Shown: piece by piece, positions 1,279 to 25,423 of the stretch
Layout: each line of letters begins with the position of its first letter
Numbering within the stretch: position 1 is the first letter of the stretch
NCBI GenBank assembly: GCA_903922465.1
Contig: CAIXTV010000288.1
Location: 1-33,769, forward strand
DNA: 33,769 nucleotides
Direction: 5' to 3'
Origin: an uncultured bacterium
GTDB lineage: Bacteria; Bacteroidota; Bacteroidia; Bacteroidales; CAIXTV01
Position numbers and translations under genes: made by a program
Notes under the pieces: model-generated
Seen by the model: only the letters and a program-made list of their open reading frames with translations
What the model was told of the DNA's origin: nothing
Databases searched by the model: none

Positions 1279-1306
1279 TACACCTAAAAATGAAACTCGG
1301 AAATTC

Positions 1307-1368: not shown

Positions 1369-1372
1369 AAAC

Positions 1373-2038: not shown

Positions 2039-2058
2039 AAAAACCTGCTATGCATCGT

Positions 2059-2263: not shown

Positions 2264-2349
2264 TGAAAATACGCCTTAAGTTTCTGGATGTTCCAATTCT
2301 CTCAGTTTCCAATTGTCACATTTTCAAATTAACACATTATCACATTACT

Positions 2350-2817: not shown

Positions 2818-2847
2818 CCTCAAACCACAAAACTCTCTTAGCACAGC

Positions 2848-3155: not shown

Positions 3156-3259
3156 AAACCACTGCATGCCTCCAATACCTCATTACCGCATTAACACATT
3201 AACACATTACCCCACCGCCTCCCCCCCCAACCACCCAACAATTTATAGTCATTTAATTT

Positions 3260-4453: not shown

Positions 4454-4534
4454 TAACTCCTGTTACCAACGTTACTAATCGTTACTAAAAAAGGTTCCTC
4501 CTGGCACTCAATTGTAAAATTCCATAATCCCTCT

Positions 4535-4680
4535 CAATCCGCAATCCGCATTCCGCAATCCGCAATCCGCATTCCGCAATCCCCAATCCCCAATCCCCAA
4601 TCCGCAATCCGCAATCCGCAATCCGAAATCCGCAATCCGCATTCCGCAATCCCCAATCCGCAATCCGCAATCCCCCATCC
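4535..4680 (+). repeat. CAATCCG heptamer tandem array
   Basis: About 20 head-to-tail heptamers, mostly CAATCCG with variants CATTCCG, CAATCCC and AAATCCG, run to within 3 nt of the ATG of the next gene. The repeat thus occupies the whole translation-initiation region. A stray pair of the same unit is at about 484-499, so the repeat is dispersed. No spacer structure is present, so it is not a CRISPR array. Confidence 0.9.
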
Positions 4681-4682
4681 CC

Positions 4683-5876
4683 ATGTCCTACAAATACACC
4701 CTCGAAACCTCCACTATCCAACCTGCTTTCGATAACTCAAAACGCAACACCATCGGAACATGCCCTTTTTGCGGCAAAAGCAACAAAGATGGCAAGTTTG
4801 TTCCCTATGTGGGCTTTAAAGATAAAGGTCGTTGCTTCTCATGTGGCCAGCATTCTCTCATCGGTGTCCACACCTGTCCCTCCTGTAAAACGGAGAAAGC
4901 ATTTAACAGGTATATCAATACAAATACGAAGGAGTACATTGCCGGTATTGTCGGCAAATGCCTATGCTGCGGGTACCATTATCCTCCAAAACAATATTTC
5001 GAAAACAATACGGCTCTGAACAGTCCACAGATACCTAAACACCAGCCTGGCTTTCAACAAGCTTTTCAAATACCCGTTCCTTCGGAACCACCAATTATTG
5101 CCACTTCCTTCATACCTGTCGATATTTTCAAAGCCAGCCTCAATAACCATAAGCAAAATAATTTTGTCAAGTTTTTGCTCAGCCTTTTCGGCAATACCGT
5201 TACGAGCCGGTTAATAAGTCAGTATTTTATTGCAACCTCCAAATACTGGCCGGGAGCAACTATATTTTGGCAAGTAGACACTTCAGGCAAAGTCCGTACA
5301 GGTAAGATCATGCTCTACGATTCCAAAACAGGAAAACGAATAAAAGAGCCAGTAAGCCGCATTGCCTGGGCACATGTTGTTTTAAAAAGAAAAGACTTCC
5401 AACTCCGCCAATGTTTCTTCGGCGAGCATCTTTTAATCGACAAAAACAAACCTGTAGCCATTGTCGAAAGCGAAAAAACCGCCATCATAGCAAGTGTCTA
5501 TCTGCCGCAGTTTATATGGCTTGCTGTTGGAGGCAAGGAAGGTCTGAATTCCGAAAAGTTCAGGGTCCTGACCGGCCGCAGTGTTACCCTTTTCCCCGAT
5601 CTGAATGCATTCGACTCATGGAGTGCCAAGGCAAAAGAACTTTCACACCTGGCACACATTACAGTTTCCGGATTATTACAAAACAATGCAACCCCTTCCG
5701 AACGCCAACAAGGCCTCGACCTTGCCGACTACCTCATAAAATTTGATTACAAACTATTTGCAAAACACACAACTGATCCTGTCGGGGAACTCTCCCCAGC
5801 CTTTGAACCTCAGCAACCATCAGCATCGGTAAACAATTCTCCTCCTCTACTAAAGCCTTTCATTCATAAAAATTAA
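4683..5876 (+). CDS. DUF6371-type zinc-ribbon/Toprim primase-like protein
   Basis: A 397-aa protein. The N-terminus holds zinc-ribbon cysteine pairs C27/C30 with C51/C54, and C65/C68 with C93-C96. The middle carries a FWQVDTSGKVRTGKIMLYD core (about 195-213), and residues 257-311 form a Toprim-like unit with VESEKTA (261-267) and FPDLNAFD (304-311), the acidic residues expected to bind metal. This layout (zinc ribbons, then a Toprim fold) is that of the Bacteroidota DUF6371 family and resembles DnaG-type primases of phages. Likely role: priming replication of the mobile element. Its start codon sits directly behind the heptamer array. The stop is followed in the same frame by the next small gene. 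Confidence 0.75.
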   Translation: MSYKYTLETSTIQPAFDNSKRNTIGTCPFCGKSNKDGKFVPYVGFKDKGRCFSCGQHSLIGVHTCPSCKTEKAFNRYINTNTKEYIAGIVGKCLCCGYHYPPKQYFENNTALNSPQIPKHQPGFQQAFQIPVPSEPPIIATSFIPVDIFKASLNNHKQNNFVKFLLSLFGNTVTSRLISQYFIATSKYWPGATIFWQVDTSGKVRTGKIMLYDSKTGKRIKEPVSRIAWAHVVLKRKDFQLRQCFFGEHLLIDKNKPVAIVESEKTAIIASVYLPQFIWLAVGGKEGLNSEKFRVLTGRSVTLFPDLNAFDSWSAKAKELSHLAHITVSGLLQNNATPSERQQGLDLADYLIKFDYKLFAKHTTDPVGELSPAFEPQQPSASVNNSPPLLKPFIHKN

Positions 5877-6389: not shown

Positions 6390-7301
6390 ATGGAAATTAA
6401 CCAGGAAACTCGCTATAAATATACTTTCTCCGGCCACGAATCTTTTCAATGTCGGCAACTTTGGCTTAAAAAAGGTTATGATTTCATTGCTGCGGGAAAA
6501 TCATTTAGATCAGAAGATGCGGTTGTAACTCTTGGAGTAGGAAAAAATATGGTTTCGTCAATCAAATTCTGGTTAAAGGCTTTTAACCTTATAGATGTAA
6601 ATGACAAACTCACTGAATTCGCTTTTGTTATTTTTGACGATGAAACAGGGTTTGATCCTTATCTTGAAGATGAAGCAACATTATGGTTGCTTCATTATCA
6701 ACTAATTAAAAATCGTTTCGCTTCCACTTATTCATTAATATTCAATGAACTGAGACGTGAAAAAATAGAATTTACTAATGATCATTTTGTTTCGTTTATT
6801 AAGAGAAAATCTGAAACTGAGTCCTCGTTATCTTTCAATGCAAATACAATCAATGCTGATTTTGAGGTTTTTAGAAAGATGTATTATGCCGAAAATTCTA
6901 ACACTCAAACTGAAGAGGGTTATTCAGGATTATTGACGGACCTGGGTCTTCTCAAAAGCTATGAGAAAGAAATTCCGGTTGGCAGTTTTAAAAACGTTCG
7001 GAAAGATATTTTCTATATTGAAAATAATGAGCGTAAAAGCATCCCCCCAGAAATATTCCTTTACACTATTATCGACAATTCTAAGTATGACCTAATTGTT
7101 AATTTTAACTCTATTGAACAAGATTATGATAGCTCAGGTTCTATTTTTGCGTTGAACCATGTAGGCTTAAAAAATAAAATTGATGAGTCTGTCGATATGT
7201 TTGACTTTATCACTTTTAGTGACCATGCAGGAATAAAAGAACTACAATTTAAGTACAAACCTTCATCTATTGAAATATTGAGGAGATACTATGAAAAATA
7301 A
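6390..7301 (+). CDS. sspB: DUF4007 family protein, SspB-like nickase of DNA phosphorothioation
   Basis: A 303-aa DUF4007 protein. The family signature is at the N-terminus: FSGHESF (13-19), then R22 and W25-LKK, followed by a helix-turn region (VVTLGVGKNMVSSIKFWLKA, about 45-64) typical of the family. In the Ssp single-strand phosphorothioation system, SspB is the DUF4007 protein and is reported to nick DNA to allow sulfur insertion. The gene overlaps the ATPase gene downstream by 11 nt and is followed by an ATP-pyrophosphatase gene, giving the order sspB-sspC-sspD. I assign the role from family and gene order; which residues are catalytic cannot be told here. The base composition is clearly more AT-rich than the genes before 6160. 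Confidence 0.8.
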   Translation: MEINQETRYKYTFSGHESFQCRQLWLKKGYDFIAAGKSFRSEDAVVTLGVGKNMVSSIKFWLKAFNLIDVNDKLTEFAFVIFDDETGFDPYLEDEATLWLLHYQLIKNRFASTYSLIFNELRREKIEFTNDHFVSFIKRKSETESSLSFNANTINADFEVFRKMYYAENSNTQTEEGYSGLLTDLGLLKSYEKEIPVGSFKNVRKDIFYIENNERKSIPPEIFLYTIIDNSKYDLIVNFNSIEQDYDSSGSIFALNHVGLKNKIDESVDMFDFITFSDHAGIKELQFKYKPSSIEILRRYYEK

Positions 7302-10300
7302 TTTCACGCCGTCAATAAATATTCTTCGTGATACGGACAGGGATTTCTACTATATCCCAACTCCCAATGCACAGCGAATTGTAAGTCAACTTGTTTTGGA
7401 CTTCAAAGCCGGAATTAGGTCATTTAATATAATCGGGTCATACGGTACAGGTAAATCCTCATTTCTTTTAGCATTAGAACAAACTCTTAGAAATAAAAAG
7501 CCATATTTTAATGCAAGATTTGTCCAGGATCAATCCTATGATGTTATAAAAATTATTGGCAATTATTGCTCTTTAAAATCTGCTTTTGTCGATCACTTTG
7601 ACTTAAGTAATTACAATATAAAAAGTGAATTCATATTTGCTGAGATCTTTAACCGATATAATGATATTGACAAGAAGACACCTCTATTATTTATCGAAAT
7701 TGATGAATTTGGAAAGTTTCTTGAATATGCAGCTAGTAACAATCCGGAGCAGGAGCTATATTTCATTCAGCAACTTTCAGAATTTGTCAGTAATCCATCA
7801 AACAATATCGTTCTTCTTACAACTATTCATCAAAGCTTTGAAAGTTATGGATTTTCACTTTCAGATAATCAAAGACAGGAATGGACAAAAGTTAAAGGCC
7901 GTTTACGCGAAATTCCATTTAATGAACCTGTTGAACAATTATTATTTCTGGCTTCAGAATTTATTTCTGACTCTGTCAACGTCGAAATAGAACAAGAAAA
8001 GCTTGTTAATTCGTATGAGATATTCAAAAAAACGAGGGCTTTCAATTTTACAGAGCGGTACAGCCAGGAAATCAATTCCAAGATTTATCCTCTTGATGCT
8101 TTGTCTTCAAATACTTTAACGCTTGCATTACAAAGATATGGTCAGAATGAAAGGTCTTTATTTTCATTTCTCGAGGCTACTGATCATACAAGTTTAAGCC
8201 ACTTTAAGAAAGTAGATGCAGATTTCTATAATCTTGCGAGTGTTTACGATTACCTAAACTTTAACTTTTATAATTTCCTAAATTCTCGTTTTAATCCTGA
8301 CTTTGCTTTGTGGGCTTCGATCAAGTCGGCACTTGAATCCGTTGAAAGAGAACTTGATTATAATATTCACGACTTTTCAAAGATAATTAAAACGATAGGG
8401 TTGTTAAATATTTTTGCCGCATCAGGCTCAGACTTAGGCAAACAATTTCTATCCGAATATGCATTAGTTTGTTTGAACATTTCCCAGCCAGAAGAACTTA
8501 TCGCAAAGCTAACATCAAAACATATCATTAGGTTTCGTAACCATAGCAGAAGATATGTACCTTTTGAAGGTACTGATCTTGATATCCAGACAGCTCTTAT
8601 TGAAGCCGCAAATAAAGTTAGTTTAGGCAATGATCTTGTAACTTTGATCAATAGGCATTGTACATTTAATAATAAAACTGCTAATGCTTATTCTTATGAA
8701 AAAGGAACTATCCGTACTTTTAAATATGAGGTTTCTGATTCTCCGCTTCATTTTGAACCTGAAGGTGACATTGATGGATATATTAATTTGATATTCAGTG
8801 AATATCAAACTGTAAATGACATCAAAAAAGCTTCGTCAGTTCAGGGCGAGGCAATACTTTATGGATTTTATCTTAATACCAAGGATATTCAAAAACACAT
8901 TTTGGAAATTGAGAAAACTCAAAATGTGATAAATGAAAATTCGGATGATAAAGTAGCTAAAAGGGAGTTAGAAAACATACTTCAGCATCATAAAAATTTG
9001 CTTAATCACAGTATTGAAAGCACCACTTTTGGTGAAAAAAGCGAAGTGGTTTGGATTTGGAATGGTGAAATAAAAGAGATTGATTCACCAAAATCATTCA
9101 ACAAATTACTGTCATTAATTTGTTTCACTACATATGATGCAACTCCCGTTTTTAAAAATGAGTTAATAAACAAGCATCGTATCTCCAGTCAAGCACACTC
9201 CGCAAAAAGAAATTATTTTAAAGCACTTGCAAATAGCTGGCAGGACCCAAACTTAGGTTTTGATCAGGATAAATTTCCACCTGAAAAGACAATATTTATA
9301 ACATTGCTGAAAGAAAACGGCCTTTCTCCCTACCGCGATGATTTTAATCTGAATAATTTCTTTCCTTCCAATGATTCATTTCGTCCATTATGGGAAGCTT
9401 CTGTTAAATTTTTAGAAAGTGCTAAAAATGAAAAGAGAAAGATCACCGAATTGATTGAACATCTGCAGAAAAGACCTTTCAAATTAAAGCAAGGACTTAT
9501 CGATTTTTGGGTACCCACATTTTTATTCCTAAAACGCGATGAGTTTGCGCTTTTCAGTCAGAATGGTTTTATTCCTAATCTTAGTGATGATAACTTGGAA
9601 TTAATCTCAAAAGACCCAACAGCCTATCAAATTAAAACCTTTGACATTGATGGTGTTCGGCTCGATCTTTTTAATAGCTATAGGGTTCTATTAAATCAGG
9701 AAACAAAAGAAAAATTAAGTTCTGACTCATTTATTGAAACCATCAAACCGTTCCTGATATTTTATAAGCAACTCACCGAGTACTCAAAACACACGAAGAG
9801 GCTGAGCAAAGAGGCTCTTTTGATTCGACAAGCAATTGTTGACTCAAAAGATCCGGAAAAAACTTTCTTTGAAGATTTTCCTAGAGCTCTCAGAACTTCT
9901 TCTGAAGACCTTGCCAATGACAAAGAAAAACTTGCTGAGTATTCCGATCAGCTTCAATCAGCTATTCGTGATATCCGAACAAGTTTCGATAGATTGGCAG
10001 ATCGCTTTGAGGAGTTTATCCAGGATCAGGTTGTTTTCGAGAAAGTTGAGTTTGATTTTTATAAGGTTAAATTACAGAAACGTTTTAGCGTTGTTAAATC
10101 TCATTTGATGTTGCCATATCAAAAGACCTTTGTTCAACGCATCGAATCCGCACTTGATGATCGCCGTGCTTGGCTGAGTTCAATAAGCCAATCTGTCGTC
10201 AATAAACCTCTCGAGAATCTTTCCGATGAAGATGAGGCATTACTATACGACCGGTTTAAATCATGGGTTATGGAGCTTGATAGCCTTACAACAATGTCAA

Positions 10301-10512
10301 AAGCAATTGTTGATTCTGATAAAGAGGAACTTTTAGGTATTCAGTTTGATTCTTTTATAAATGGCATCAAGAAAACAATGGTTCGTTTGCCCAAATCAAA
10401 AACAATAGAGATTGAGAATATCAAAGAATCAGTTAAAACAGTACTCTCTGATGATAAGTCATTGAACATTGCTGCACTTACAAGGTTGTTAAAAGAAATA
10501 TTAGGTCAATGA
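7291..10512 (+). CDS. sspC: Large P-loop ATPase, SspC-like
   Basis: A 1073-aa protein with an N-terminal P-loop ATPase domain: Walker A GSYGTGKS (49-56) and Walker B LLFIEIDEF (132-140), followed by LLTTIHQSF, a sensor-like segment (about 177-185). The remaining about 800 residues lack motifs I can name and are mostly helical, with coiled-coil-like stretches near residues 890-925. Length, position after a DUF4007 gene and before a DndC-like gene match SspC, the ATPase of the SspABCD DNA phosphorothioation machinery, which is thought to power strand opening or complex remodelling. It overlaps sspB by 11 nt and sspD by 4 nt (ATGA), so the three are translationally coupled. Confidence 0.75.
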   Translation: MKNNFTPSINILRDTDRDFYYIPTPNAQRIVSQLVLDFKAGIRSFNIIGSYGTGKSSFLLALEQTLRNKKPYFNARFVQDQSYDVIKIIGNYCSLKSAFVDHFDLSNYNIKSEFIFAEIFNRYNDIDKKTPLLFIEIDEFGKFLEYAASNNPEQELYFIQQLSEFVSNPSNNIVLLTTIHQSFESYGFSLSDNQRQEWTKVKGRLREIPFNEPVEQLLFLASEFISDSVNVEIEQEKLVNSYEIFKKTRAFNFTERYSQEINSKIYPLDALSSNTLTLALQRYGQNERSLFSFLEATDHTSLSHFKKVDADFYNLASVYDYLNFNFYNFLNSRFNPDFALWASIKSALESVERELDYNIHDFSKIIKTIGLLNIFAASGSDLGKQFLSEYALVCLNISQPEELIAKLTSKHIIRFRNHSRRYVPFEGTDLDIQTALIEAANKVSLGNDLVTLINRHCTFNNKTANAYSYEKGTIRTFKYEVSDSPLHFEPEGDIDGYINLIFSEYQTVNDIKKASSVQGEAILYGFYLNTKDIQKHILEIEKTQNVINENSDDKVAKRELENILQHHKNLLNHSIESTTFGEKSEVVWIWNGEIKEIDSPKSFNKLLSLICFTTYDATPVFKNELINKHRISSQAHSAKRNYFKALANSWQDPNLGFDQDKFPPEKTIFITLLKENGLSPYRDDFNLNNFFPSNDSFRPLWEASVKFLESAKNEKRKITELIEHLQKRPFKLKQGLIDFWVPTFLFLKRDEFALFSQNGFIPNLSDDNLELISKDPTAYQIKTFDIDGVRLDLFNSYRVLLNQETKEKLSSDSFIETIKPFLIFYKQLTEYSKHTKRLSKEALLIRQAIVDSKDPEKTFFEDFPRALRTSSEDLANDKEKLAEYSDQLQSAIRDIRTSFDRLADRFEEFIQDQVVFEKVEFDFYKVKLQKRFSVVKSHLMLPYQKTFVQRIESALDDRRAWLSSISQSVVNKPLENLSDEDEALLYDRFKSWVMELDSLTTMSKAIVDSDKEELLGIQFDSFINGIKKTMVRLPKSKTIEIENIKESVKTVLSDDKSLNIAALTRLLKEILGQ

Positions 10513-11612
10513 GCAAAGTCCGTCATTTATTAGGAATTTCAGGAGGTAAGGACAGTGCTGCTTTAGCTATTTACCTATTCAATAAATATCCAAAACTCGA
10601 TATTGAATACTATACTTGTGATACAGGTGAAGAGCTAGATGAGACTTATCAGTTAATTCAGAATCTTGAAAACTACTTTGGTAAAAAAATCCTGAATTTA
10701 CGTGCAGCTGAGAATAGTTCGATTTCACCATTTGACCATTTTTTAACAATGTATGGTGGATTTCTACCATCATCAAATTCCAGATGGTGTACCAAAAAAT
10801 TGAAGCTTGAACCGTTTGAGAATTTTGTCTCATCTGATCAAGTTATCTCCTATGTTGGAATACGAGGCGATGAAGACCGAGATGGATATATTTCACGAAA
10901 AACTAACATTCAATCCATCTTTCCTTTTCGCCGGAATATTTGGAGTGAAGATGTTGTTCGTAAATTTTTGAATAACAGTATTATTGATCAATCTATTTCT
11001 TGTTGTGAGTTAGTTGATTTAAGCAATAAAAGAAATCGTTTTGTTGAGCTGCTTTCAAAGCCATTATCTCCTTCTTTTACAATGCAGAATAAATTGAATT
11101 TACTTTTTGACCTAGGAATAAAGGAAACTAATCGCCTCATTTTTGAATTTCTAAAAAGCACGGAATACCCTTTAGCTAAAGAAACAGATTTCCCATTATT
11201 AGATAATGAAGAAATTCTTGTTCGGGATGACATATTCCGGATTTTAGAAGAAAGCGGGGTAGGAGTCCCGGAATATTATAAAAAAATTGAATTTGAAGTG
11301 AATGGCAAAAAAGGTGATTATTCCCGGAGTCGCTCTGGCTGTTACTTCTGTTTTTTTCAGCAAAAAATCGAATGGGTCTGGCTATATGAACAGCATCCTG
11401 ATCGATTTTCACAGGCTCAGGAGTATGAAAAAGATGGTTATACCTGGAACCAGGAAGAGAGTTTGGCTCAATTAATACAGCCAGAAAGAATAATAAAAAT
11501 AAAAGAAGATTATTTAAAAAGGACATTGCGTAAGGCTAAACAAAAATCACCATATTTGCTCGATATTTTAGGGGAAGCGGAAGGTGAAGGATGTGCTGCT
11601 TGTTTCATTTAA
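10509..11612 (+). CDS. sspD: SspD/DndC-like ATP-pyrophosphatase (PAPS reductase family)
   Basis: A 367-aa PP-loop enzyme. The ATP-binding loop SGGKDS is at residues 11-16, followed by the CDTGEELDETY segment (37-47) and RWCTKKLK (92-99) typical of phosphoadenosine-phosphosulfate-reductase-like proteins. Cysteines C94, C278, C281 (SGCYFC) and C362/C365 (CAACFI at the very end) are candidate ligands of the iron-sulfur cluster known in DndC. Role: activates the DNA backbone phosphate and receives persulfide sulfur from the cysteine desulfurase. It begins in a 4-nt overlap with sspC and ends 14 nt before the MORC-like gene. About 50 residues between 140 and 190 differ from a minimal PAPS-reductase core and probably carry substrate specificity. 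Confidence 0.85.
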   Translation: MSKVRHLLGISGGKDSAALAIYLFNKYPKLDIEYYTCDTGEELDETYQLIQNLENYFGKKILNLRAAENSSISPFDHFLTMYGGFLPSSNSRWCTKKLKLEPFENFVSSDQVISYVGIRGDEDRDGYISRKTNIQSIFPFRRNIWSEDVVRKFLNNSIIDQSISCCELVDLSNKRNRFVELLSKPLSPSFTMQNKLNLLFDLGIKETNRLIFEFLKSTEYPLAKETDFPLLDNEEILVRDDIFRILEESGVGVPEYYKKIEFEVNGKKGDYSRSRSGCYFCFFQQKIEWVWLYEQHPDRFSQAQEYEKDGYTWNQEESLAQLIQPERIIKIKEDYLKRTLRKAKQKSPYLLDILGEAEGEGCAACFI

Positions 11613-11626
11613 AAGAATATACAATT

Positions 11627-13381
11627 ATGGAAGTTGATCTTGATATAAATGCCGGAAGATTACTTTTTGGGCTGAGTCGAATTGGGTATACAACATCGTC
11701 TGCTCTATGTGATATCATAGATAACTCTATTCGAGCTAATGCGAAGATTATAAGATTAGTAATCTTAAAAGAGCGTAATGATTTTTCAGACCTCAAAAGG
11801 AATAATATTAAAGAATATATAATTATTGATGATGGGGATGGTATGAATAGGTTGGGTATCATTAAAGCCCTAGGTCTCGGATCCTCATCTGAAGACTATG
11901 GTATGCATTCATTGTCAAAATTTGGATTAGGTTTAAAGTCGGCAGCCTTTTCACAAGGCAATATCTTAGAAATTATTTCTTCAGATGGAAATGGATTTAA
12001 CAAATTTCAAGTTTCCTTACCAAAAATTATTGGAACCACATTTTATAAAGCCGATGAATGTGATTTAAACAGTACAGACCATTTGTTAATTCAGCAACAC
12101 TTGGCAGGAGGAAAAGGTACTATTATTAGAATTTCTGAGATTAGAAAGAATAATCATCCGAGTGTTAGTAATACAATAAAAGAATTAAATACTAAAGCAG
12201 GAGTAATCTATTATTATTTCATTCAAGAAAGAGATGTTAAAATTTTTATAGGCGAAAACCAGATTTCTGCAATAGACCCTCTGTTTATTGATGAAGCAAA
12301 CTTAAATGGGAATTTGGATGAGAATGAGTGGGGAGGAACAGACGTTAAGTGGATAGAGAAAACGAAAACAATTACTCTTGATAATGAACTTAGTATAACA
12401 GCTGAAATAGAAATTACTCAATTACCTTACCCGCCAATTTTCAGAATTAAGAATTTTGGAGAATCGAAAGACGCTGAAATAAGGAGAAAATATATGATCG
12501 AAGCTGCGAATTACGGTTTCTATGTTTATCGCAATAAGAGATTAATTTCTTGGGCATCGCATTTAGAGGGTATAATACCATTTGATCAAGATTTTTATGC
12601 ATTTAGAGGTAGGATTTCAATAGACGATACTGCAGATGACTTTTTTAATATTGATGTAAAAAAATCGACTCTTACTCTTTCAGAAGAAGCACTTAGGATT
12701 ATTAATGATGTGACAAGAGAAGCTCGAGCAAAAAGCAAGAATGCATGGTTAAATGCAGGTAAAATCCGAAGAGATATTATTAACAGAGATCCAAATGAAA
12801 TAGCTAATAAAATATTAAGTGATTTTGATCAAATAGAGATTCTACCTGGTGACACAGAACCCTCTCTTGAAGAATCTACTCATCGTATTGATCAAATTAC
12901 CCAAGATATGGCTAGTAGAGTCAAGATTATTATAAAAATGATGAGGCAGGATAAAGGCGAAGATGTAGTTGAACCAGTTGAAATTACAACTGAAGAAAAA
13001 GAAAGAGCGGTTAAGGGAGAGATTAACCCAGAACTTTCCAAGATTTTTCGAGTAAGTTCAGTAATTGACAATCTTTTGTGGGAACCATATTATGATACAG
13101 ATTTGGGGAACTGTGTACGTATAAATAAACTTCATAGGTTCGCATTATATGTTTATGAGAATAATGCAAATAACCAAGATCTCCAAATATCCTTTGATCT
13201 TCTTATGTTACAGCTTGCAGATTCAGAGTTCTACGCTTACAAAAACATAACAGATTTTGATTATGAACAAATAAAAAAAATATTATGGGATTTTCGAAGG
13301 ATAGTATCTGAATTTCTTGCTAACATGGTAAGAAAGTTAGAAAACACATTACCACCTAATTACAATTCATCAAATGAATGA
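11627..13381 (+). CDS. MORC-like GHKL ATPase in the phosphorothioation operon
   Basis: A 584-aa protein with a GHKL (Hsp90/MutL/MORC) ATPase domain. The motifs are: N box CDIIDNSIRA (28-37), G1 box DDGDGM (68-73), and G2 box SKFGLGLKSA (97-106). A transducer-like domain follows with the lysine-containing strand FFNIDVKKS (about 343-351). The C-terminal about 200 residues are unassigned. The layout fits prokaryotic MORC-type ATPases, which occur in restriction neighbourhoods. I start it at ATG 11627, 14 nt after sspD; the longer frame from 11591 would run into sspD and adds an unlikely CCLF leader. Its stop overlaps the GIY-YIG gene by 4 nt, so ATPase and nuclease are coupled. It may act as the ATP-driven clamp that loads the nuclease on unmodified DNA (inference). 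Confidence 0.75.
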   Translation: MEVDLDINAGRLLFGLSRIGYTTSSALCDIIDNSIRANAKIIRLVILKERNDFSDLKRNNIKEYIIIDDGDGMNRLGIIKALGLGSSSEDYGMHSLSKFGLGLKSAAFSQGNILEIISSDGNGFNKFQVSLPKIIGTTFYKADECDLNSTDHLLIQQHLAGGKGTIIRISEIRKNNHPSVSNTIKELNTKAGVIYYYFIQERDVKIFIGENQISAIDPLFIDEANLNGNLDENEWGGTDVKWIEKTKTITLDNELSITAEIEITQLPYPPIFRIKNFGESKDAEIRRKYMIEAANYGFYVYRNKRLISWASHLEGIIPFDQDFYAFRGRISIDDTADDFFNIDVKKSTLTLSEEALRIINDVTREARAKSKNAWLNAGKIRRDIINRDPNEIANKILSDFDQIEILPGDTEPSLEESTHRIDQITQDMASRVKIIIKMMRQDKGEDVVEPVEITTEEKERAVKGEINPELSKIFRVSSVIDNLLWEPYYDTDLGNCVRINKLHRFALYVYENNANNQDLQISFDLLMLQLADSEFYAYKNITDFDYEQIKKILWDFRRIVSEFLANMVRKLENTLPPNYNSSNE

Positions 13382-13833
13382 TACACACAAAAGTTGACAA
13401 TATCCATAATGGTATTGATACAGCATACATATACATTTGGTTATCTAAAGGCTATTCGGTCATATATATAGGGATGACTAACAATTCTTGTGGACCAATA
13501 GGTAGGGCTCAGGGTCACTTTTATGCCTCAGGCACTTTCAGAAAAAGATTTCTTCAAGAGAGAGGAATTGGAATAGAAAAAGTTCTTGATATGACACTTC
13601 TAAGTTTCCCTCTTCCTAAAAAAAGAGAATACACAGGATTAGAGAGCTCTTATAGAGAGTCAGTTGAATATCTTGTAATGAGGGAGTTGCAAATTCAAAG
13701 AGGAACGCTGGTTCCGAGTTTTGACGTTGTATCATGGCATGATAGAGTTCCCAGAAGGACAAGAAATAGTGAGGTTAAAAACTTGGCAAACTTTATTGTA
13801 ACGGATTTCATTGCAGCTTATCCAACTTTATAA
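13378..13833 (+). CDS. GIY-YIG family nuclease
   Basis: A 151-aa protein with a recognisable GIY-YIG core: AYIYIW (16-21), then VIYIGMT (28-34), the conserved Arg R43 in IGRAQGHF with H47, and a glutamate helix ESVEYLVMRELQ (94-105) that would supply the metal-binding Glu. GIY-YIG enzymes cut DNA by hydrolysis of a phosphodiester. The gene overlaps the MORC-like gene by 4 nt (ATGA) and is the last of the five-gene plus-strand operon. It is a plausible restriction nuclease paired with the ATPase. The protein is a single domain of near-minimal length with a short C-terminal extension that may confer specificity. Confidence 0.8.
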   Translation: MIHTKVDNIHNGIDTAYIYIWLSKGYSVIYIGMTNNSCGPIGRAQGHFYASGTFRKRFLQERGIGIEKVLDMTLLSFPLPKKREYTGLESSYRESVEYLVMRELQIQRGTLVPSFDVVSWHDRVPRRTRNSEVKNLANFIVTDFIAAYPTL

Positions 13834-13959: not shown

Positions 13960-14472
13960 CTAAGTTGCTATCCTTTTGTCTTGATTTTTAAGGAACCCAA
14001 CCGTATTCAACGTATTTTCAAAATATGTTGGATCATCTTTAACTTGCTTTTCAATAATTTCAAATCCGCCTTTAGCGTAGCTTTCTAATAAATATAGCAA
14101 TTCATTTGCTTTATCATTTGCCTGTTCCTCAGTCAAATCTTCAATTTGTTCAAACTCGAAATCAGCCAGTGCCAATAAACTCATAAATATATACTGGGTA
14201 AGCGGCTTTGGTTTCCAGGATTCAATCTTAAGGAACTTCGTCCCTTCAGCCCGGTTAAATGGCAATGCATTATTTGCTCTCATGCCAATAATAGCAGCGT
14301 ACATATAACATTCATAATAAGAACCAAAGGATTTTCCTCTCTCAAACTGTTCTTCATCAGTGCCCTCTGATGTACTTACTTCTTTTTTTCTCGATAATTT
14401 TTCTACCAAATTTCTGTAAACATTCGGATAATGTGGTTCTTTTGATTCAAATTTTTCTATTAATGTCTTCAT
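13960..14472 (-). CDS. Unknown 170-aa protein, last gene of the minus-strand operon
   Basis: An acidic helical protein, 170 aa, with no family I recognise. Visible segments: LTEEQANDKANELLYLLESYAKGGFEII (helix-rich, in two parts) and a central RGKSFGSYYECYMYAAIIGMRANNALPF segment with clustered aromatic residues; I give only the general pattern. It overlaps the start of the DndD-like ATPase gene by 4 nt, so it is translationally coupled to it and probably binds it. In described phosphorothioation-linked SspFGH-type modules small partner proteins accompany the large ATPase and helicase; this one may play that part, but that is inference from position. Confidence 0.65.
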   Translation of the reverse strand: MKTLIEKFESKEPHYPNVYRNLVEKLSRKKEVSTSEGTDEEQFERGKSFGSYYECYMYAAIIGMRANNALPFNRAEGTKFLKIESWKPKPLTQYIFMSLLALADFEFEQIEDLTEEQANDKANELLYLLESYAKGGFEIIEKQVKDDPTYFENTLNTVGFLKNQDKRIAT

Positions 14473-16646
14473 ATTAAGTCAACTGCTTTAATGTTTATCG
14501 ATAATTCTTTCCGATTGGTAGAGACAACTCCAGTAGGTAGATCTAACTGTATAACATTTATTAATTTACCTTCTTGTTGTAGTGAATCTCTCAAATCTTT
14601 AAGCCTCTTGCCATCTGGCGAATAGCGGTTAGTCCTGGTACTATCATCAATTAAATAATCCATCACAATAATAATACTTTGAGAAAAAGTATTTGATGCC
14701 TCAATTAGGAATGATTTGGCTTTTTTTGCATCAAAGTCAGAGATCGGAGCATCTGCAATCAGTGGATACCTATCTGCATATCCTCTTTTATGATTAGCTG
14801 TAATAATGGCCATAATTATAGCGAGCTTCATTGATGATGTCTGAGAAGTATTCAGGTTTGAAACTCTCTCACCACTATCATCAAAAATCTCGGGAATAAA
14901 ACCACCTCCAGTAGTTTCAATGAATTTTATATTTCCATAAAATGCTCCAGTAGGTTTATTTATTCTCTCATAATGTTCGTTCGCTTTCGTTTGCAATAGA
15001 TCCACTAGGCCTTTATATTCAGTAGCTTTTATTCGTATTGCAAGCTGAGCCAGGTCACTAAGTAATTCCATTTTTTTTGTGATGAGTGAATCAATTTCTC
15101 CAATGGAAAGACTTTTCAACTTAGATTCAAAAAATTTAAGCGAATTTTCTAAAGCCTCTTTGTCGCGTTCAAGTTTACCTATCGTTTGTGAATATTTCTG
15201 TAAATCCTGGTTAGAAACGGTTGCCATTGCAATAATATCGGCGGCTTTTTCAACCCCACTATTCAATATCTCATTGTTAACACTACTCACCAATGCTTCA
15301 ATTTCATCTTTCAACTCTTTCTGCCGTACAACAAGTTCATCTTTTTTCTTTATTGCTTCAATAATTTCCTGATCAGCTCTCCCTGATTTTTCAGTCATCG
15401 TAAAACCAGCGTTCCACAACTTTCTGAGATCATATTCAATATCTTTAATTGAATTCTTCTTTGTAGCTGTTTCAGGCAATAGTTGTTCGATCGATTTATA
15501 TTCAGGAGTTCCTTTTTTTGCAGGTCTATCGCATACTAAACAATGCTGTTTATCAAGCATGCTTTGTACATGCATCCTTTCGGGAATGCCTCTTGGCAAT
15601 CTGTCTTGACTTTGCGAAGCAAGGTCTTCTGTCGTTTTCCTGATCCTCAGATTTTCTAAATATCTATTGTATTTTTCTTCATACTTTAATAGAAACTGCT
15701 TTGTATCCATTAAGAGCCAGGACTCTTTAAAAAGCCCTTTGGTGAAATTTAAGTGAGAGTTTTCGATTTCACTTGTAACATTTTTGTATTCTTTGATCTT
15801 ATCTTCTTTTTTTCGTTCAATTAAGCTTATTTTATTTGCTGATGAAAGCTTACCTATTACCGCGTTTGATTTTTCGCTGGCAGCCTCTCTGTTTTTCTGG
15901 GCATTTTTTAACTCCTCAATACAGATGACTAATTTGCTTTGTGCATCACGCTGTTTCTTAATTAAATCATCGTAATCTTGCCTGTTTCTAGTTGATGATT
16001 TTAAAGCAGTGTTGAATTGATTTGTTGCGGTGATTGCTGCTTTTTCCGAAATCGCAATATATTCATCCCATCTTTCAATGTCAGAAAGCCTTTCGATAAC
16101 TCTCTTTAGAGAATCCTTGCTTGATGTATCAATAATGCTATTAACTCCTCGTTCACCCTGGAACCAGACATAGGGCATAACTTCATCAGGAATTAGTTTT
16201 TGAGTTATGCTTTGAGCGAAATCCTCACTAACTGGCTTGAAGTGAATAACATCCTTTTTATAAACATCTAATGAACTCGATCTGGCTTCAATCCATATTT
16301 CATCACTCTGTTTTGTTGCAAAATATTTTCTGATTAGCTGATAGGTTTCTTGTGCTAATGTAACTTCTATTATAACTTCACATTTTAATTTATCACCAAT
16401 CTTTGCTTCAGCCAAAGCTTTGTCTGATATCAAAGCTTTTTTTAACTGTTCAGTTTGTTTTAATCTGCCCGTAACCTTTTCATCTGTAATCCCATCCTTA
16501 AATACCCATTGAAAAGCATCATAAAGCTTCGATTTCCCATAACCATTTGCTCCAAGAACCAGATTTAATCCATCTTTAAAATCAATACGATTATTTTCCC
16601 CATAGTAGCAAAGGAAATTTTTTAACTGTATACTGTGTATCTTCAT
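14469..16646 (-). CDS. DndD/Rad50-like SMC-type ATPase with zinc-hook-like CxxC
   Basis: A 725-aa ATPase of the RecF/Rad50/DndD type. The Walker A GANGYGKS is at 32-39, after the typical N-terminal strand LKNFLCYYGEN. An ABC-signature-like LNTSQTSSMKLA lies at about 598-609, and the Walker B region is LIADAPISDFD (629-639). Between them are two coiled-coil arms (about 220-300 and 420-530) that meet at HCLVCD (C369/C372), which resembles the Rad50 zinc hook. DndD in the Dnd system has a similar build, and the gene sits two genes downstream of the cysteine desulfurase. Likely role: ATP-dependent DNA-binding or nicking-control subunit of the phosphorothioation-linked restriction module. It overlaps the 170-aa gene by 4 nt and follows the 72-aa gene by 14 nt. 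Confidence 0.75.
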   Translation of the reverse strand: MKIHSIQLKNFLCYYGENNRIDFKDGLNLVLGANGYGKSKLYDAFQWVFKDGITDEKVTGRLKQTEQLKKALISDKALAEAKIGDKLKCEVIIEVTLAQETYQLIRKYFATKQSDEIWIEARSSSLDVYKKDVIHFKPVSEDFAQSITQKLIPDEVMPYVWFQGERGVNSIIDTSSKDSLKRVIERLSDIERWDEYIAISEKAAITATNQFNTALKSSTRNRQDYDDLIKKQRDAQSKLVICIEELKNAQKNREAASEKSNAVIGKLSSANKISLIERKKEDKIKEYKNVTSEIENSHLNFTKGLFKESWLLMDTKQFLLKYEEKYNRYLENLRIRKTTEDLASQSQDRLPRGIPERMHVQSMLDKQHCLVCDRPAKKGTPEYKSIEQLLPETATKKNSIKDIEYDLRKLWNAGFTMTEKSGRADQEIIEAIKKKDELVVRQKELKDEIEALVSSVNNEILNSGVEKAADIIAMATVSNQDLQKYSQTIGKLERDKEALENSLKFFESKLKSLSIGEIDSLITKKMELLSDLAQLAIRIKATEYKGLVDLLQTKANEHYERINKPTGAFYGNIKFIETTGGGFIPEIFDDSGERVSNLNTSQTSSMKLAIIMAIITANHKRGYADRYPLIADAPISDFDAKKAKSFLIEASNTFSQSIIIVMDYLIDDSTRTNRYSPDGKRLKDLRDSLQQEGKLINVIQLDLPTGVVSTNRKELSINIKAVDLI

Positions 16647-16660: not shown

Positions 16661-16879
16661 CTATTTAAGCCTGTGGTCCAGTACTGTATTTAATTGAGCT
16701 GCGGCAACATTAATAGAAGGAGCTTCAGCTTGTTTTACTATCAATTCTTTAACCAATGTTATCATAATGTTTGGTTCTGACACGGTCATATTAAGTGAAT
16801 CAATATGTTCGTCATCAATTTTGTATTTTGCTTTAATTTCTGGATCTTTTAAAAAAGTCCTAAGTACTTCAATTTGCAT
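16661..16879 (-). CDS. 72-aa unknown protein between helicase and DndD-like ATPase
   Basis: A small, mostly helical protein of 72 aa with an acidic/hydrophobic pattern (LRTFLKDPEIKAKYKIDDEH, VKELIVKQAEAPS). It lies 12 nt after the helicase stop and 14 nt before the DndD-like start, in the middle of a compact operon, which is the main reason to believe it is real. Its size is smaller than DndE (about 110 aa) and it lacks features by which I could link it to that protein. It is a plausible small subunit of the complex; function unknown. Confidence 0.55.
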   Translation of the reverse strand: MQIEVLRTFLKDPEIKAKYKIDDEHIDSLNMTVSEPNIMITLVKELIVKQAEAPSINVAAAQLNTVLDHRLK

Positions 16880-16891: not shown

Positions 16892-19117
16892 TTATTTGAG
16901 TTCTTCATGTAAAGTATCTAAATTCAGATCATAGTAATTGCATATTTCACGCAGAGATTCTATCGCTTCATATTTATTGATTGCCATGTAAGCAAAATGC
17001 ACAACTCTCTCCAACTCCTTTTTAACCAGGTTTCTTTCAATATCGAAACTTAGGCTACTTAAGGAAACTTTTGGAATTACTACTAGGTCATATATTTTAG
17101 CAAATCGTTTTTCGGGATGCTTTCTTAAAATTCGTCCCCTCCTCTGAATAAATTGTCTTGGATTTCCTGTACTTGAGCAGAATATAGCCTTCTCAGCCCT
17201 GGGAATATCAACGCCTTCATCTAAGCATTTCATAGATAAGAGAACATCAATTTTTCCTTTTTCAAACCCACTCAATATCAGTTCCTTATCTTCTGATTCA
17301 CTTGTATACTGTGTAACAGTTGTTTCAGGAGAAACTGTGCGTATTATGTTTGAATAATAATCAATAATCCTGCTGTCAGATTCTACTTCTGGAAAAGAGT
17401 CTTCTAATGTTTCTTCATCATTATAATATCCTTCCGGAGCATAAACTAACAAATATTGTAATCCATTCACTTCTTTTCTTAGATTACTTATAATGCTCTC
17501 AAAAGCTGTTAACTTATCTTTAGCTTTATGAATAATCCTCTTTCGAAGCATCAATAAATCCTCATATCGTTTTTTAGCATCCTTATCTTTCGCACTCAGT
17601 TGAAATACTTTTACTATTTGCAATGTGATTTCATTGTAGTGAACCATTTCATCAATAGTCAACTCAACCACTTTGGGATAGTAATAATATTGTGTCAATA
17701 TTCCCTCTTCAATAGCCCTGTCCATCGGGAAATTATATGTATACGGCTCTTTATCATGGAAAAAAGCTTCCATACTTTCAGAACCTTCGGGATCATAATT
17801 TCTCTTTGGTGTCGCAGATAAGCCTATCCTTTTATTAATATCAGTGATTTCTAACTTTTTTTTCACTGCTAATGCACCAATGTTGTGAGCTTCATCTGCA
17901 ATAAGTATTGCTTTGGTTTTTACGGAGGTTACAAATTCTTGGAACTTTGCCGAGATAAAAGTCTTATAAGTTGAGATAATTACAAAAGATTCATTCAAAC
18001 CAAACAATTCTTTTACTCTTAAATTATCAAGTTCTTTTTTCCAGTCATTATTTTTTGAAGAAGCTTTAACTAATCCCTGAAAATTAAATTTCTTAACCTC
18101 TTTTTCCCATTGCTCAACCAGGACAATTGTAGGAACCAAAATAATAACCTTGTAAAAATTGCATTTCGAATATTCATTCAATACACAGTTCAGAGCAGTT
18201 AGTGTTTTCCCGGTCCCGGTTGCCATTGCAAAAATACCCTTATATTCATTTTTACACCAATTTTCATATGCTTCAACTTGATAATCACGCGGACCTTTTG
18301 AAAATGGGAACTTAGGATTCCTAGCTAATATTTCAATCTTGGCATTTATTTTTTCGAATGATTTTCTGATTCCATTGTTTTCAAGAACCTTGTTTTTTTC
18401 AAAAGCAAGCTCCTTTTCTTTAATGATCAGTTCATTAATTGTTTTATCTCCAAATTCGTTTCTGATAGCAATTATAACATCTTCAACTTCATGATAAGCA
18501 ACAAAATCAGCTTCTTCTGAGAATATTTTTTCAAAATATTTTTTTTGTCCATTAATATATTTGTTTGACCTACCATTCTCCCAGGATAAAAAACTTTCTA
18601 ATTCTTCTAGATTTTCTAACAATCCATATGCTGTGAAATTGCATGAGGCTTTAAATCCAACGGAATCTATCCCATCAAAGAAAACACCCGATTTATAATG
18701 TGCTATTCCTTTTCCGTTTTTAGGCCCGATTATTTTTATATTTATTTTTTCATTTCCGATTAACCAGGAAAGGCATTCAAAAAAATGCTTTCCATATTCA
18801 TTTAATGAACTTTTCAGCTTTTTAATATCAGATAGGTCTAAAGCATCAATCGGAATCTCTCCATCAAGGCCAGTTTTTATAGCATCTTTATCTTCTTGGG
18901 ATAGTACATTATTTATAACCATCCTCATTGTTCCTCCGGTATATAAAAAGGAAGCAAATCCTAACGATAAAACATTTATTGCTGCTGAGCTAAAGTATCC
19001 AAGTAATAAATCAAAATTGGTACTATTACATAATCCATCTAAGTAGAATTGGACTGCTTCATTTTCGCTCCCACTTCTATAAGACCTATCCTCTGACCAA
19101 TCAACCTCTCTAAGCAT
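16892..19117 (-). CDS. PLD-nuclease/SF2 DEAH-box helicase fusion
   Basis: A 741-aa protein with two modules. Residues 30-180 form a phospholipase D-like domain: H140 and K142 (HYK), an Asp at 148 and N160 with an E171/E174 region make a single HKD-type motif, so a nuclease active site would need a dimer. Residues 275-690 are an SF2 helicase: ATGTGKT (299-305), DEAH (408-411), LSATP (433-437), and QRRGR (658-662). The fusion is the known layout of restriction-associated DEAD/DEAH helicases that cut DNA while translocating, and the copy next to a cysteine desulfurase is common in phosphorothioation loci. The first codon overlaps the cysteine-desulfurase gene by 8 nt. Probable role: restriction effector on unmodified DNA. 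Confidence 0.85.
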   Translation of the reverse strand: MLREVDWSEDRSYRSGSENEAVQFYLDGLCNSTNFDLLLGYFSSAAINVLSLGFASFLYTGGTMRMVINNVLSQEDKDAIKTGLDGEIPIDALDLSDIKKLKSSLNEYGKHFFECLSWLIGNEKINIKIIGPKNGKGIAHYKSGVFFDGIDSVGFKASCNFTAYGLLENLEELESFLSWENGRSNKYINGQKKYFEKIFSEEADFVAYHEVEDVIIAIRNEFGDKTINELIIKEKELAFEKNKVLENNGIRKSFEKINAKIEILARNPKFPFSKGPRDYQVEAYENWCKNEYKGIFAMATGTGKTLTALNCVLNEYSKCNFYKVIILVPTIVLVEQWEKEVKKFNFQGLVKASSKNNDWKKELDNLRVKELFGLNESFVIISTYKTFISAKFQEFVTSVKTKAILIADEAHNIGALAVKKKLEITDINKRIGLSATPKRNYDPEGSESMEAFFHDKEPYTYNFPMDRAIEEGILTQYYYYPKVVELTIDEMVHYNEITLQIVKVFQLSAKDKDAKKRYEDLLMLRKRIIHKAKDKLTAFESIISNLRKEVNGLQYLLVYAPEGYYNDEETLEDSFPEVESDSRIIDYYSNIIRTVSPETTVTQYTSESEDKELILSGFEKGKIDVLLSMKCLDEGVDIPRAEKAIFCSSTGNPRQFIQRRGRILRKHPEKRFAKIYDLVVIPKVSLSSLSFDIERNLVKKELERVVHFAYMAINKYEAIESLREICNYYDLNLDTLHEELK

Positions 19118-20276
19118 TACTTAATGTGTAGTCGATTAATAAATTATGTATAATTTGGATAGCACTTGTTATTTCCTCTTCAGTATTGAACTTTCCAAGA
19201 GAAAAACGTATGGATGCCATTGCATCATCTTCGCTGAGGCCCATAGCTTTTAATACATGTGAAGGTTCTAGTAAAGCCGATGAGCATGCTGAACCAGTAG
19301 CTACTGCAATGTTTTTCATCTTTCCTATAAGTATGTCTGCATCAATTCCGCTAAAACAAATATTGCTAACATTATAAATTCTATTTTTCTTATTTCCATT
19401 CAAACAAGAATTTGGTAATTCCAATAGTTCTTTTTCCAGTTTATCCCTTAATAATCCAATTCTATAAGTATTAGCATTCATTTCTTTCTTTGCAATCTCA
19501 CAAGCTTTACCTAGTCCAACAATCCCGGGAACATTCAATGAGCCGCTTCGAAGTCCATTTTCATGTCCCCCTCCATAAATCAACGGTTTAATTTTAAATC
19601 TATTTCTTTTAAAATCATTAATATATAACACACCAACACCATAAGGTCCATAAAACTTATGCGAAGAAAAAGCCATTATGTCAATTCCTAAATTCCGAAC
19701 ATCAACTTCAATCTTACCTACTGCCTGTGTTGCGTCACACATAAAAATTGCTCCGGCCTGATGCGTAATATTTGAAATCTCTTTAATTGGTTGTATTACA
19801 CCTGTCTCATTATTGACAAACATAACACAAACTAAAATCGTGCCTTCTCTTAAAGTGTTTTTCAGTAGATTTAAATCAATAAGGCCATCAGAAATAACCG
19901 GCAAATAAGAAATTTCGAATCCAATTGATTCAAGGTACTTACAAGTTTCTAGAGTAGCTTTATGTTCCGTTTCTACAGTAATAATATGATTGCCATTCTG
20001 TTGATTGGCAACAGCAAATCCTTGTAAAGCGATATTTATACTTTCGGTGCCTCCTGAAGTAAATACAATTTCAGGTGGACCTGCATTAATCAGGTTAGCA
20101 ACCTTTAATCGGGCGTTTTGGATATCATTTAATATTTTTAATCCGAAACTGTGCGAGCTTGACGCATTAGCGTATAATTCAGTGAAATAAGGCAACATTG
20201 CTTCCACAACACGGTCATCCGTTTTTGTGGTAGCATTATTGTCTAGATATATAAAATCCTTATTCAAGCTATTCAA
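19110..20276 (-). CDS. sspA: Cysteine desulfurase (SspA/DndA/IscS-type)
   Basis: A 388-aa pyridoxal-phosphate enzyme of the NifS/IscS family. Signature elements: LDNNATT near the N-terminus (11-17), EH105 in VETEHKATL, the PLP-binding lysine in SSHKFYGP (K207), RSGSLNVP (243-250), and the catalytic cysteine C331 in ATGSACSSALLEPSH (327-340). It removes sulfur from cysteine and passes it as persulfide. Next to the ATP-pyrophosphatase system across the convergent operon, it most likely supplies sulfur for DNA phosphorothioation (SspA/DndA), as the first gene of the minus-strand operon. An alternative housekeeping iron-sulfur role cannot be excluded, because IscS-type proteins are also used for DndA function; the 8-nt overlap with the helicase argues for the defence role. 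Confidence 0.85.
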   Translation of the reverse strand: MNSLNKDFIYLDNNATTKTDDRVVEAMLPYFTELYANASSSHSFGLKILNDIQNARLKVANLINAGPPEIVFTSGGTESINIALQGFAVANQQNGNHIITVETEHKATLETCKYLESIGFEISYLPVISDGLIDLNLLKNTLREGTILVCVMFVNNETGVIQPIKEISNITHQAGAIFMCDATQAVGKIEVDVRNLGIDIMAFSSHKFYGPYGVGVLYINDFKRNRFKIKPLIYGGGHENGLRSGSLNVPGIVGLGKACEIAKKEMNANTYRIGLLRDKLEKELLELPNSCLNGNKKNRIYNVSNICFSGIDADILIGKMKNIAVATGSACSSALLEPSHVLKAMGLSEDDAMASIRFSLGKFNTEEEITSAIQIIHNLLIDYTLSNA

Positions 20277-21491: not shown

Positions 21492-21499
21492 CTGATAAT

Positions 21500-25417: not shown

Positions 25418-25423
25418 GAGACA

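What the first reader, a model, noticed from the sequence alone, without database searches (positions are those of the whole stretch)
11627..13833. MORC-like GHKL ATPase and GIY-YIG nuclease as a possible new phosphorothioation-linked effector pair
The two genes are in the sspBCD operon, 14 nt after sspD and overlapping each other by 4 nt. Known partners of SspABCD that I recall are SspE (DUF262/DUF1524) and the SspFGH-type set, neither of which is MORC + GIY-YIG. GHKL ATPases act as ATP-gated clamps and GIY-YIG domains cut DNA, so this pair could read the absence of sulfur and cut.
Basis: partly seen in the sequence, partly recalled or inferred. Interest (0 to 1): 0.78.

Follow-up and report, generated by a model that had tools for sequence, protein, structure and literature searches.

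The report
MORC–GIY-YIG pair beside DNA-sulfur genes
Beside genes that put sulfur into a bacterium's own DNA sits a two-gene cassette, a MORC-type ATP-driven clamp and a small DNA-cutting enzyme, that was found next to DNA-sulfur genes at every one of its loci examined and is probably an undescribed weapon against phage DNA lacking the sulfur mark.

Summary
sspBCD (6390-11612) is followed after 14 nt by a MORC-like GHKL ATPase (11627-13381) that overlaps a small GIY-YIG-type gene (13378-13833) by 4 nt.

The pair recurs: 14 loci, 14 of 14 with GIY directly after MORC and 14 of 14 with phosphorothioation (PT) genes upstream (12 Ssp, 2 Dnd). In two genome samples 3 of 3 and 6 of 6 clade members found are PT-linked. 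Ten of the 14 are near-copies of one flavobacterial island: about five independent contexts. MORC-GIY is better conserved than the neighbouring SspB and SspC and combines with divergent SspBCD lineages and with Dnd, so it behaves as an exchangeable effector cassette.

More widely, 12 of 22 SspC-bearing genomes in a 395-genome Bacteroidota sample carry one of three GHKL types near SspC.

Best reading: MORC senses PT status and licenses GIY-YIG nicking of unmodified DNA. PT linkage is well supported; cutting, its direction and phage defence are inferred. Known kind (PT-based restriction-modification), new effector variant; not found in print here.

The parts
6390..7301 (+). sspB (DUF4007)
   Evidence: PADLOC SspB 2.4e-107; PF13182 3.2e-72
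7291..10512 (+). sspC (large ATPase of the Ssp modification module)
   Evidence: PADLOC SspC E=0, 1436 bits
10509..11612 (+). sspD (PAPS-reductase-like / ATP pyrophosphatase)
   Evidence: PADLOC SspD 6.9e-92; PF01507 7.2e-6
11627..13381 (+). MORC-like GHKL ATPase, 584 aa; predicted ATP-gated clamp/sensor of the effector pair
   Evidence: HATPase_c_3 1.3e-19; profile hits MORC4/2/3, SMCHD1, MutL; GHKL motifs invariant; tree clade 100/99
13378..13833 (+). GIY-YIG-type endonuclease, 151 aa; predicted (nicking) nuclease of the pair
   Evidence: family profile reaches UvrC and exonuclease-GIY-YIG proteins; Y30, G32, R43, H47, E97 invariant; low-confidence AF2 model whose best Foldseek rows are UvrC GIY-YIG domains at E 0.25 or worse
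13960..14472 (-). pbeD-like / dnd_assoc_4, 170 aa
   Evidence: TIGR04062 4.7e-11, below its cut-off; position after pbeC
14469..16646 (-). pbeC-like SMC/ABC ATPase, 725 aa
   Evidence: PADLOC PbeC 1.7e-27
16661..16879 (-). pbeB-like small ORF, 72 aa
   Evidence: position only: 67-79-aa ORFs occupy the same slot in L036, L079, L081, L083; no model hit
16892..19117 (-). pbeA, SF2 helicase, 741 aa
   Evidence: PADLOC PbeA E=0, 1033 bits; TIGR04095 1.2e-125, below its cut-off
19110..20276 (-). sspA/dndA-type cysteine desulfurase
   Evidence: PADLOC SspA 1.7e-156

Best explanation
MORC-GIY is a two-protein effector cassette of phosphorothioate-based defence. SspABCD (elsewhere DndCDE) puts sulfur into the backbone of self DNA. 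The MORC protein, an ATP-dependent GHKL clamp, loads on DNA and tests PT status. On DNA without PT it stays engaged and presents the DNA to the GIY-YIG nuclease, which nicks or cuts it; on self DNA, meeting PT triggers release, as published for DndI, whose ATPase is stimulated by PT and which then dissociates. Shown here: gene order, family identities, conserved active-site residues, recurrence, and PT genes at every pair locus examined. Inferred: complex formation, PT sensing, cutting, preference for unmodified DNA, and phage defence.
For: GIY directly follows MORC in 14 of 14 loci and PT genes lie upstream in 14 of 14: window, L034, L036; L112-L119; L174, L175, L177; repeated with more queries. 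Samples: 3 clade members among 395 genomes of the phylum, 3 of 3 PT-linked, and 6 among 397 genomes of one family, 6 of 6 PT-linked (G355 is in both). The GIY family has 3 full-length hits in the 395, in exactly those 3 genomes. Tree: the pair's MORCs form one clade, 100/99, with Ssp- and Dnd-linked subclades. Cassette behaviour: window vs L112/L034, MORC 68/51% and GIY 53/44%, while SspC is 39/26% and SspB 43/31%; of the loci compared, the closest SspC (57%, L079) sits in a locus without the pair. GHKL-SspC co-occurrence: 8 genomes hold both, each pair within 8 kb; with the seed genome set aside 7 observed, 1.2 expected, P 6e-5. An HTH_3 gene precedes sspB in the flavobacterial island (tested in L112 and L117), like a restriction-system control gene (recalled), which weakly fits a self-toxic effector. 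One other MORC branch (L031-L033, L038, L178) has an HNH-type gene next to MORC, in L031-L033 with dcm and vsr. DndI mechanism: passages of PMC11662687.
Against: No experiment. No PT-sensing surface could be identified; both AF2 models are poor (pLDDT 48 and 52). Ten of the 14 loci are 83-100% identical DNA copies of one island, so about five independent contexts. In this window PbeABCD could be the effector. Eleven of 14 loci also carry the ~820-850-aa GHKL protein, so the pair may not suffice there; the window's genome has no match to it. SspD, unlike SspB and SspC, is about as conserved as MORC and GIY (55-56%). In L034 an IS-type transposase gene and the large GHKL gene lie between sspD and MORC.
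Confidence: 0.57

Rival explanations
1. The pair is PT-activated, as SspE is: it needs PT-marked self DNA to be licensed and is inert in PT-free cells, so losing sspABCD silences it rather than making it toxic.
For: SspE works this way (passages of PMC8092258; of PMC11662687). GHKL ATPases can be switched on or off by a ligand (established family knowledge).
Against: Operonic coupling to the modification genes and an HTH regulator upstream in the flavobacterial island fit a potentially self-toxic effector better, but weakly. No DUF262/DUF1524 in the pair.
Confidence: 0.2
2. A backup suicide effector: GIY-YIG destroys DNA indiscriminately when the PT system is inhibited by an invader.
For: Proposed for standalone URI (GIY-YIG) nucleases at the borders of Dnd loci (section 17 of PMC10853773, read whole).
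Against: Here the GIY gene is not a loose border gene: it directly follows a MORC ATPase gene and is co-directional with the modification genes in 14 of 14 loci.
Confidence: 0.12
3. The pair belongs to the modification machinery (MORC remodels DNA and GIY nicks it for sulfur insertion) and is no effector.
For: It follows sspD or dndE, and no pair locus without modification genes was found (14 of 14).
Against: Only 2 of 22 SspC-positive genomes in the sample have it, so modification loci usually do without. SspABCD modification is published without it (passages of PMC8092258).
Confidence: 0.06
4. The pair is an accessory of the neighbouring PbeABCD-like effector.
For: PbeABCD-like genes face the pair convergently in the window and in L036.
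Against: No Pbe genes were detected in the other 12 of 14 loci (several are cut by contig ends, L119 most), and Pbe-like sets occur beside SspBCD without the pair in L079, L081+L102, L082+L103 and L083+L104.
Confidence: 0.03

Closest known systems
DndI with IscS-DndBCDE (PMC11662687, passages)
   Same: NTPase plus nuclease effector beside PT modification genes; PT stimulates the ATPase, leading to release from self DNA; nicks PT-free DNA.
   Different: One protein, DUF262 + DUF1524 (HNH); no GHKL, no GIY-YIG.
SspFGH (PMC8092258, passages)
   Same: Multi-gene effector beside sspBCD, reported to damage non-PT DNA.
   Different: Walker-A protein plus FtsK-like SspH; three genes; no GHKL or GIY-YIG described in the passages read.
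PbeABCD (PMC6459918, passages)
   Same: PT-linked multi-gene effector; a like set is present in the same island.
   Different: PLD-helicase and SMC-like ATPase; reported to stop replication without cleaving DNA.
MORC/paraMORC restriction-modification islands (PMC2292703, passages; plasmid loci L031-L033)
   Same: Bacterial MORC plus helicase and nuclease beside a modification enzyme; authors propose looping between mark and cut site.
   Different: Marks are base methylation; nucleases named in the passages are HNH, EcoRII-like, VSR or other RE-fold, and a few HKD (PLD) domains; GIY-YIG, Dnd and PAPS have 0 occurrences in its text.
URI/GIY-YIG genes at Dnd loci (PMC10853773, section 17 and passages)
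   Same: GIY-YIG nuclease near PT genes.
   Different: Described as standalone border genes, probable suicide backups; MORC and GHKL have 0 occurrences in the main text.
MZA system, MzaB
   Same: MORC-type ATPase of an anti-phage system.
   Different: 81 bits against a cut-off of 850. Near the MORC-branch rows of the tree outside the pair's clade, my queries find no ssp or dnd modification genes.

Membership tests
PT-based Ssp modification system | sspB, sspC, sspD and a cysteine desulfurase | tested here: met
   all four in the island, sspA in the convergent operon
MORC branch of GHKL ATPases | N-box, DDGxGM and GLGLKSA motifs with N33 invariant | tested here: met
MORC branch of GHKL ATPases | nearest solved relatives by profile are MORC proteins | tested here: met
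   MORC4 3e-6, MORC2, MORC3, then SMCHD1 and MutL, mostly marginal E-values
MORC branch of GHKL ATPases | S5 transducer domain and MORC signature motif | tested here: inconclusive
   model pLDDT 52; Foldseek top MORC2-DNA 4.7e-10 but TM-scores about 0.25; signature motif not tested
GIY-YIG (URI) nuclease superfamily | GIY and YIG strands, Arg and Glu catalytic residues | tested here: met
   Y30, G32, R43, H47, E97 invariant in 11; profile reaches UvrC and exonuclease-GIY-YIG proteins; which residues are catalytic is recalled
GIY-YIG (URI) nuclease superfamily | curated Pfam PF01541 cut-off | tested here: not met
   window protein no hit; best relative 22.4 bits vs 22.6. The formal Pfam threshold fails, so membership rests on motifs and profile
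GIY-YIG (URI) nuclease superfamily | GIY-YIG fold | tested here: inconclusive
   pLDDT 48; UvrC GIY-YIG top by Foldseek at E 0.25; no convincing PDB sequence match
SspE / DndI | DUF262 + DUF1524 | tested here: not met
   neither protein of the pair matches
SspFGH | Walker-A protein plus FtsK-like SspH beside sspBCD | tested here: not met
   no such family in the pair; no model named SspF, SspG or SspH appeared in the libraries' answers
PbeABCD (for the convergent operon, not for the pair) | PbeA PLD-helicase, small PbeB, SMC-like PbeC, ~150-aa PbeD | tested here: met
   PbeA and PbeC by PADLOC; PbeD-like by TIGR04062 below cut-off; PbeB by position only
MZA | MzaB equivalog score | tested here: not met
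   81 of 850 bits
PT-based restriction effector | activity dependent on PT status of DNA | not testable with these tools
   needs experiment

The most novel reading that the evidence does not exclude
GHKL/MORC ATPases are a general, repeatedly recruited reader of backbone sulfur in DNA. At least three separate GHKL types (the MORC-GIY clade; a helicase + GHKL + PLD set; an ~820-850-aa GHKL protein) serve SspBCD, and one of them also Dnd; they account for many SspBCD loci so far called orphans. Bacterial MORC would then be an epigenetic-mark sensor for a non-base mark, a parallel to eukaryotic MORC silencing.
Probability: 0.3. Interest if true: 0.82.

Novelty: new variant of a known kind. Interest (0 to 1): 0.63.

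Why it matters
The SspFGH paper reports that most sspBCD loci (printed as 2,211 of 2,678, 83.9%) have neither SspE nor SspFGH and asks whether other restriction partners exist (passages of PMC8092258). In a sample of 395 Bacteroidota genomes, 12 of 22 SspC-bearing genomes have a GHKL ATPase gene within 8 kb of sspC, so this is a concrete, testable answer for that phylum. It would also give bacterial MORC proteins a defined context, PT DNA, in which clamp function and mark reading can be measured.

Tried and rejected
Pair as Pbe accessory: rejected, no Pbe genes detected in 12 of 14 loci. Pair Ssp-specific: rejected, 2 of 14 are with Dnd. D29 instead of Glu as a sign of a dead ATPase special to this protein: rejected, Asp is common in the branch. 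GIY identity by Pfam alone: failed for the window protein, rescued by profile and relatives. Solved-structure search for GIY: nothing convincing; for the large GHKL: nothing up to E 1. Plasmids with two GIY proteins: no match; plasmids with MORC: 41 records, all under 60% identity; the three opened lie in dcm/vsr islands. Phages with MORC: 3 partial matches, not opened. Viral contigs: 3 distant MORC relatives without PT genes by my queries; no GIY relative. Promoter and terminator scan at chance level. AF2 models too weak for interface or pocket claims.

Limits of the counts. The genome search scored at most 2 or 3 first-look candidates per genome for MORC, SspC and the large GHKL, and 9 for GIY, so tallies are lower bounds. 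Other phyla were not sampled with the genome search. Neighbourhoods were opened for 18 of the 24 MORC-positive genomes (not G123, G126, G175, G203, G322, G358) and 21 of the 28 (not G486, G508, G568, G670, G678, G733, G735); the unopened ones are partial matches of under 40 bits. PT genes were sought at E <= 1e-3 with window queries and wider sets; one search repeated the opened neighbourhoods with the widest set, so very divergent genes could still be missed. Genes come from a simple ORF caller of my own except in annotated plasmids. That the sample is Bacteroidota is inferred: G698's contig equals a named Flavobacteriaceae contig and is of the window's class. Supplementary files of papers could not be read. 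Trees: searches (55 rows; 48 rows) agree on the clades; not put in either: L128, L182, L186, L188-L192 (short, split or unmatched frames) and copies L173, L175, L176; dropped: long branches L187, L131, L136, L185 and near-copies L114, L115, L118.

Full report
OBSERVATION. The two genes exist as described: MORC-like GHKL ATPase at 11627-13381, 14 nt after sspD, and a small protein at 13378-13833 overlapping it by 4 nt. sspB, sspC and sspD are firm by PADLOC. Family evidence for the ATPase is strong (HATPase_c_3 1.3e-19; MORC4/2/3, SMCHD1 and MutL as nearest solved relatives by profile). Evidence for GIY-YIG is indirect but converges: the window protein alone has no Pfam hit, two relatives have weak ones below the cut-off, a profile of 11 relatives also finds a UvrC and two exonuclease-GIY-YIG proteins (Pfam identities), Y30, G32, R43, H47 and E97 are invariant, and a low-confidence model (pLDDT 48) gives UvrC GIY-YIG domains as the two best Foldseek rows and 9 of the first 21, all at E above 0.2. 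A PDB sequence search with the same profile found nothing convincing.

On the other strand, convergent with the pair, lie sspA (20276-19110), a PbeA helicase, a 72-aa ORF in the pbeB position, an SMC-like PbeC and a 170-aa pbeD-like gene. PbeABCD is a published PT partner (PMC6459918, passages). So the window is Ssp modification plus two candidate effector sets.

RECURRENCE. In 395 genomes of the phylum the window MORC finds 24 genomes and SspC finds 25, of which 22 strongly, E below 1e-80 (the other three at E 2e-5 to 2e-4). Eight genomes have both, each pair within 8 kb. Setting the seed genome aside, 7 observed against 1.2 expected, P 6e-5 (hypergeometric on co-occurrence alone, not allowing for kinship). 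The members of the window's own clade in that sample are window, G030 and G355, 3 of 3 with GIY next door and PT genes upstream; the GIY profile has full-length matches in exactly those three genomes. In 397 genomes of one family (that of G355), 28 have some MORC match and 6 belong to the clade, 6 of 6 with GIY and PT genes. After removing overlaps (L173=L112, L176=L117; G355 counted once) there are 14 loci: 12 with sspBCD and 2 with dndC-D-E (L036; L119, where DndE is fused to a HerA/FtsK-like ATPase). L174 and L175, from two genera, are identical over 18.7 kb. Ten of the 14 are one flavobacterial island, 83-100% identical DNA over 13 kb or more across genera, one pair (Marinirhabdus, Winogradskyella) 99.4% over 21.7 kb. 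Independent contexts are therefore about five. All tallies are lower bounds, since few first-look candidates per genome were scored.

CASSETTE LOGIC. Between the window and L112/L034, MORC is 68/51% and GIY 53/44% identical, but SspC only 39/26% and SspB 43/31%; SspD (55/56%) does not follow this contrast. The window's SspBCD is closer to two loci carrying other effectors (L079: SspB 56%, SspC 57%, SspD 68%; L076: 51%, 49%, 71%). The pair has thus been combined with divergent SspBCD lineages and with Dnd. The tree (48 rows; quick tree of 55 rows) puts the pair's MORCs in one clade (100/99) with Ssp and Dnd subclades, apart from a second Ssp-linked clade (99/97) of 9 loci: L043, L047, L048, L076, L077, L078, L126, L180, L184. 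There an SF2 helicase is found in 9 of 9, and a PLD-type nuclease gene related to those of L077, L043 or L047 in 9 of 9 by phmmer, 7 of 9 of them also matching PLDc_2 in Pfam, weakly and mostly below its cut-off (L184 had no Pfam match, the L048 gene was not scanned). A third type, an ~820-850-aa GHKL protein, stands beside sspBCD in 10 flavobacterial loci and L034, and in 5 of the 22 SspC genomes (G030, G188, G122, G385, G267). G267's SspC frame is short and no SspD was found there. Five more distant members of that family (G103, G171, G255, G158, G039) show no ssp/dnd modification genes (one search had a weak DndB-like hit near G158's). Together 12 of the 22 SspC genomes have a GHKL neighbour within 8 kb. 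A Pbe-like set is beside SspBCD in 5 of 22 (window, L079, L081+L102, L082+L103, L083+L104; PbeD not matched in L082), and two more (G167, G270) have a PbeA-like helicase; the window is in both counts.

MECHANISM. Shown: coupling, conserved ATPase and nuclease residues, PT genes at every pair locus examined. Inferred: MORC as ATP-gated clamp testing PT status, GIY-YIG as nickase licensed on unmodified DNA. The nearest published logic is DndI, whose ATPase is stimulated by PT and which then leaves self DNA (passages of PMC11662687), and the MORC-loops-DNA proposal for restriction systems (passages of PMC2292703). An HTH_3 gene upstream of sspB in the flavobacterial island (L112, L117) resembles control genes of restriction systems (recalled) and fits a self-toxic effector, weakly. 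SspE-like PT activation is the main rival.

PRIOR ART. Searches for phosphorothioat* with MORC and GIY-YIG, with GHKL, mixed terms, sspBCD and Pbe/Ssp names gave no paper whose listing describes this pair. The one paper (PMC3482391) names MORC as an accessory of restriction systems and phosphorothioation only for DndB, in unrelated passages. The 2024 reappraisal of PT systems names URI (GIY-YIG) genes near Dnd loci as likely suicide backups and has no GHKL or MORC in its main text. The 2008 MORC paper has no GIY-YIG, Dnd or PAPS in its text. Figures and supplements of these papers were not available to me, most other listed papers were not opened, and most subscription papers are not held, so an earlier mention cannot be excluded.

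VERDICT. Real, recurrent, PT-linked; a new effector variant of a known kind. Confidence about 0.9 that the pair belongs to PT systems, about 0.8 that GIY is a DNA nuclease, 0.57 for the full mechanism.

Noticed in passing
L043, L047, L048, L076, L077, L078, L126, L180, L184: A second, separate set beside sspBCD: SF2 helicase (~540 aa) + GHKL ATPase (~600-660 aa) + PLD-type nuclease gene (~300-455 aa), 9 of 9 loci. It looks like Pbe with the PLD split off and a GHKL in place of the SMC-like PbeC.
   Followed up: partly
L034 11637-14090; L080, L084, L085, L086, L112-L118, L174, L175, L177: An ~820-850-aa GHKL protein family: 5 of 10 genomes with a hit among 395 have it beside sspBCD, and it is upstream of sspB in the flavobacterial MORC-GIY island.
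   Followed up: partly
window 21039-29925: A Mokosh-like set: 1305-aa SF1-type helicase (PADLOC MkoA 3e-112), 754-aa protein (MkoB 4e-5), a 209-aa protein and an IetA-like AAA ATPase. Homologues of the first three also lie beside sspBCD in L081.
   Followed up: partly
window 660-5876: Likely mobile-element genes: HTH_17, AAA_25 ATPase, DUF6371 with zinc ribbon. The window is the whole contig C288, so element ends were not traced.
   Followed up: no
L079, L081+L102, L082+L103, L083+L104: Pbe-like sets beside sspBCD and sspA; the passages read describe Pbe with Dnd.
   Followed up: partly
L119 4240-5790: DndE fused to a HerA/FtsK-like ATPase, directly before MORC-GIY.
   Followed up: no
L130 9890-20996; L132 1178-9200: GHKL proteins beside a BrxC-PglZ-BrxL set with a cysteine desulfurase (L130) and beside dndB-C-D and a desulfurase in Kitasatospora (L132): possible further sulfur links.
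   Followed up: partly
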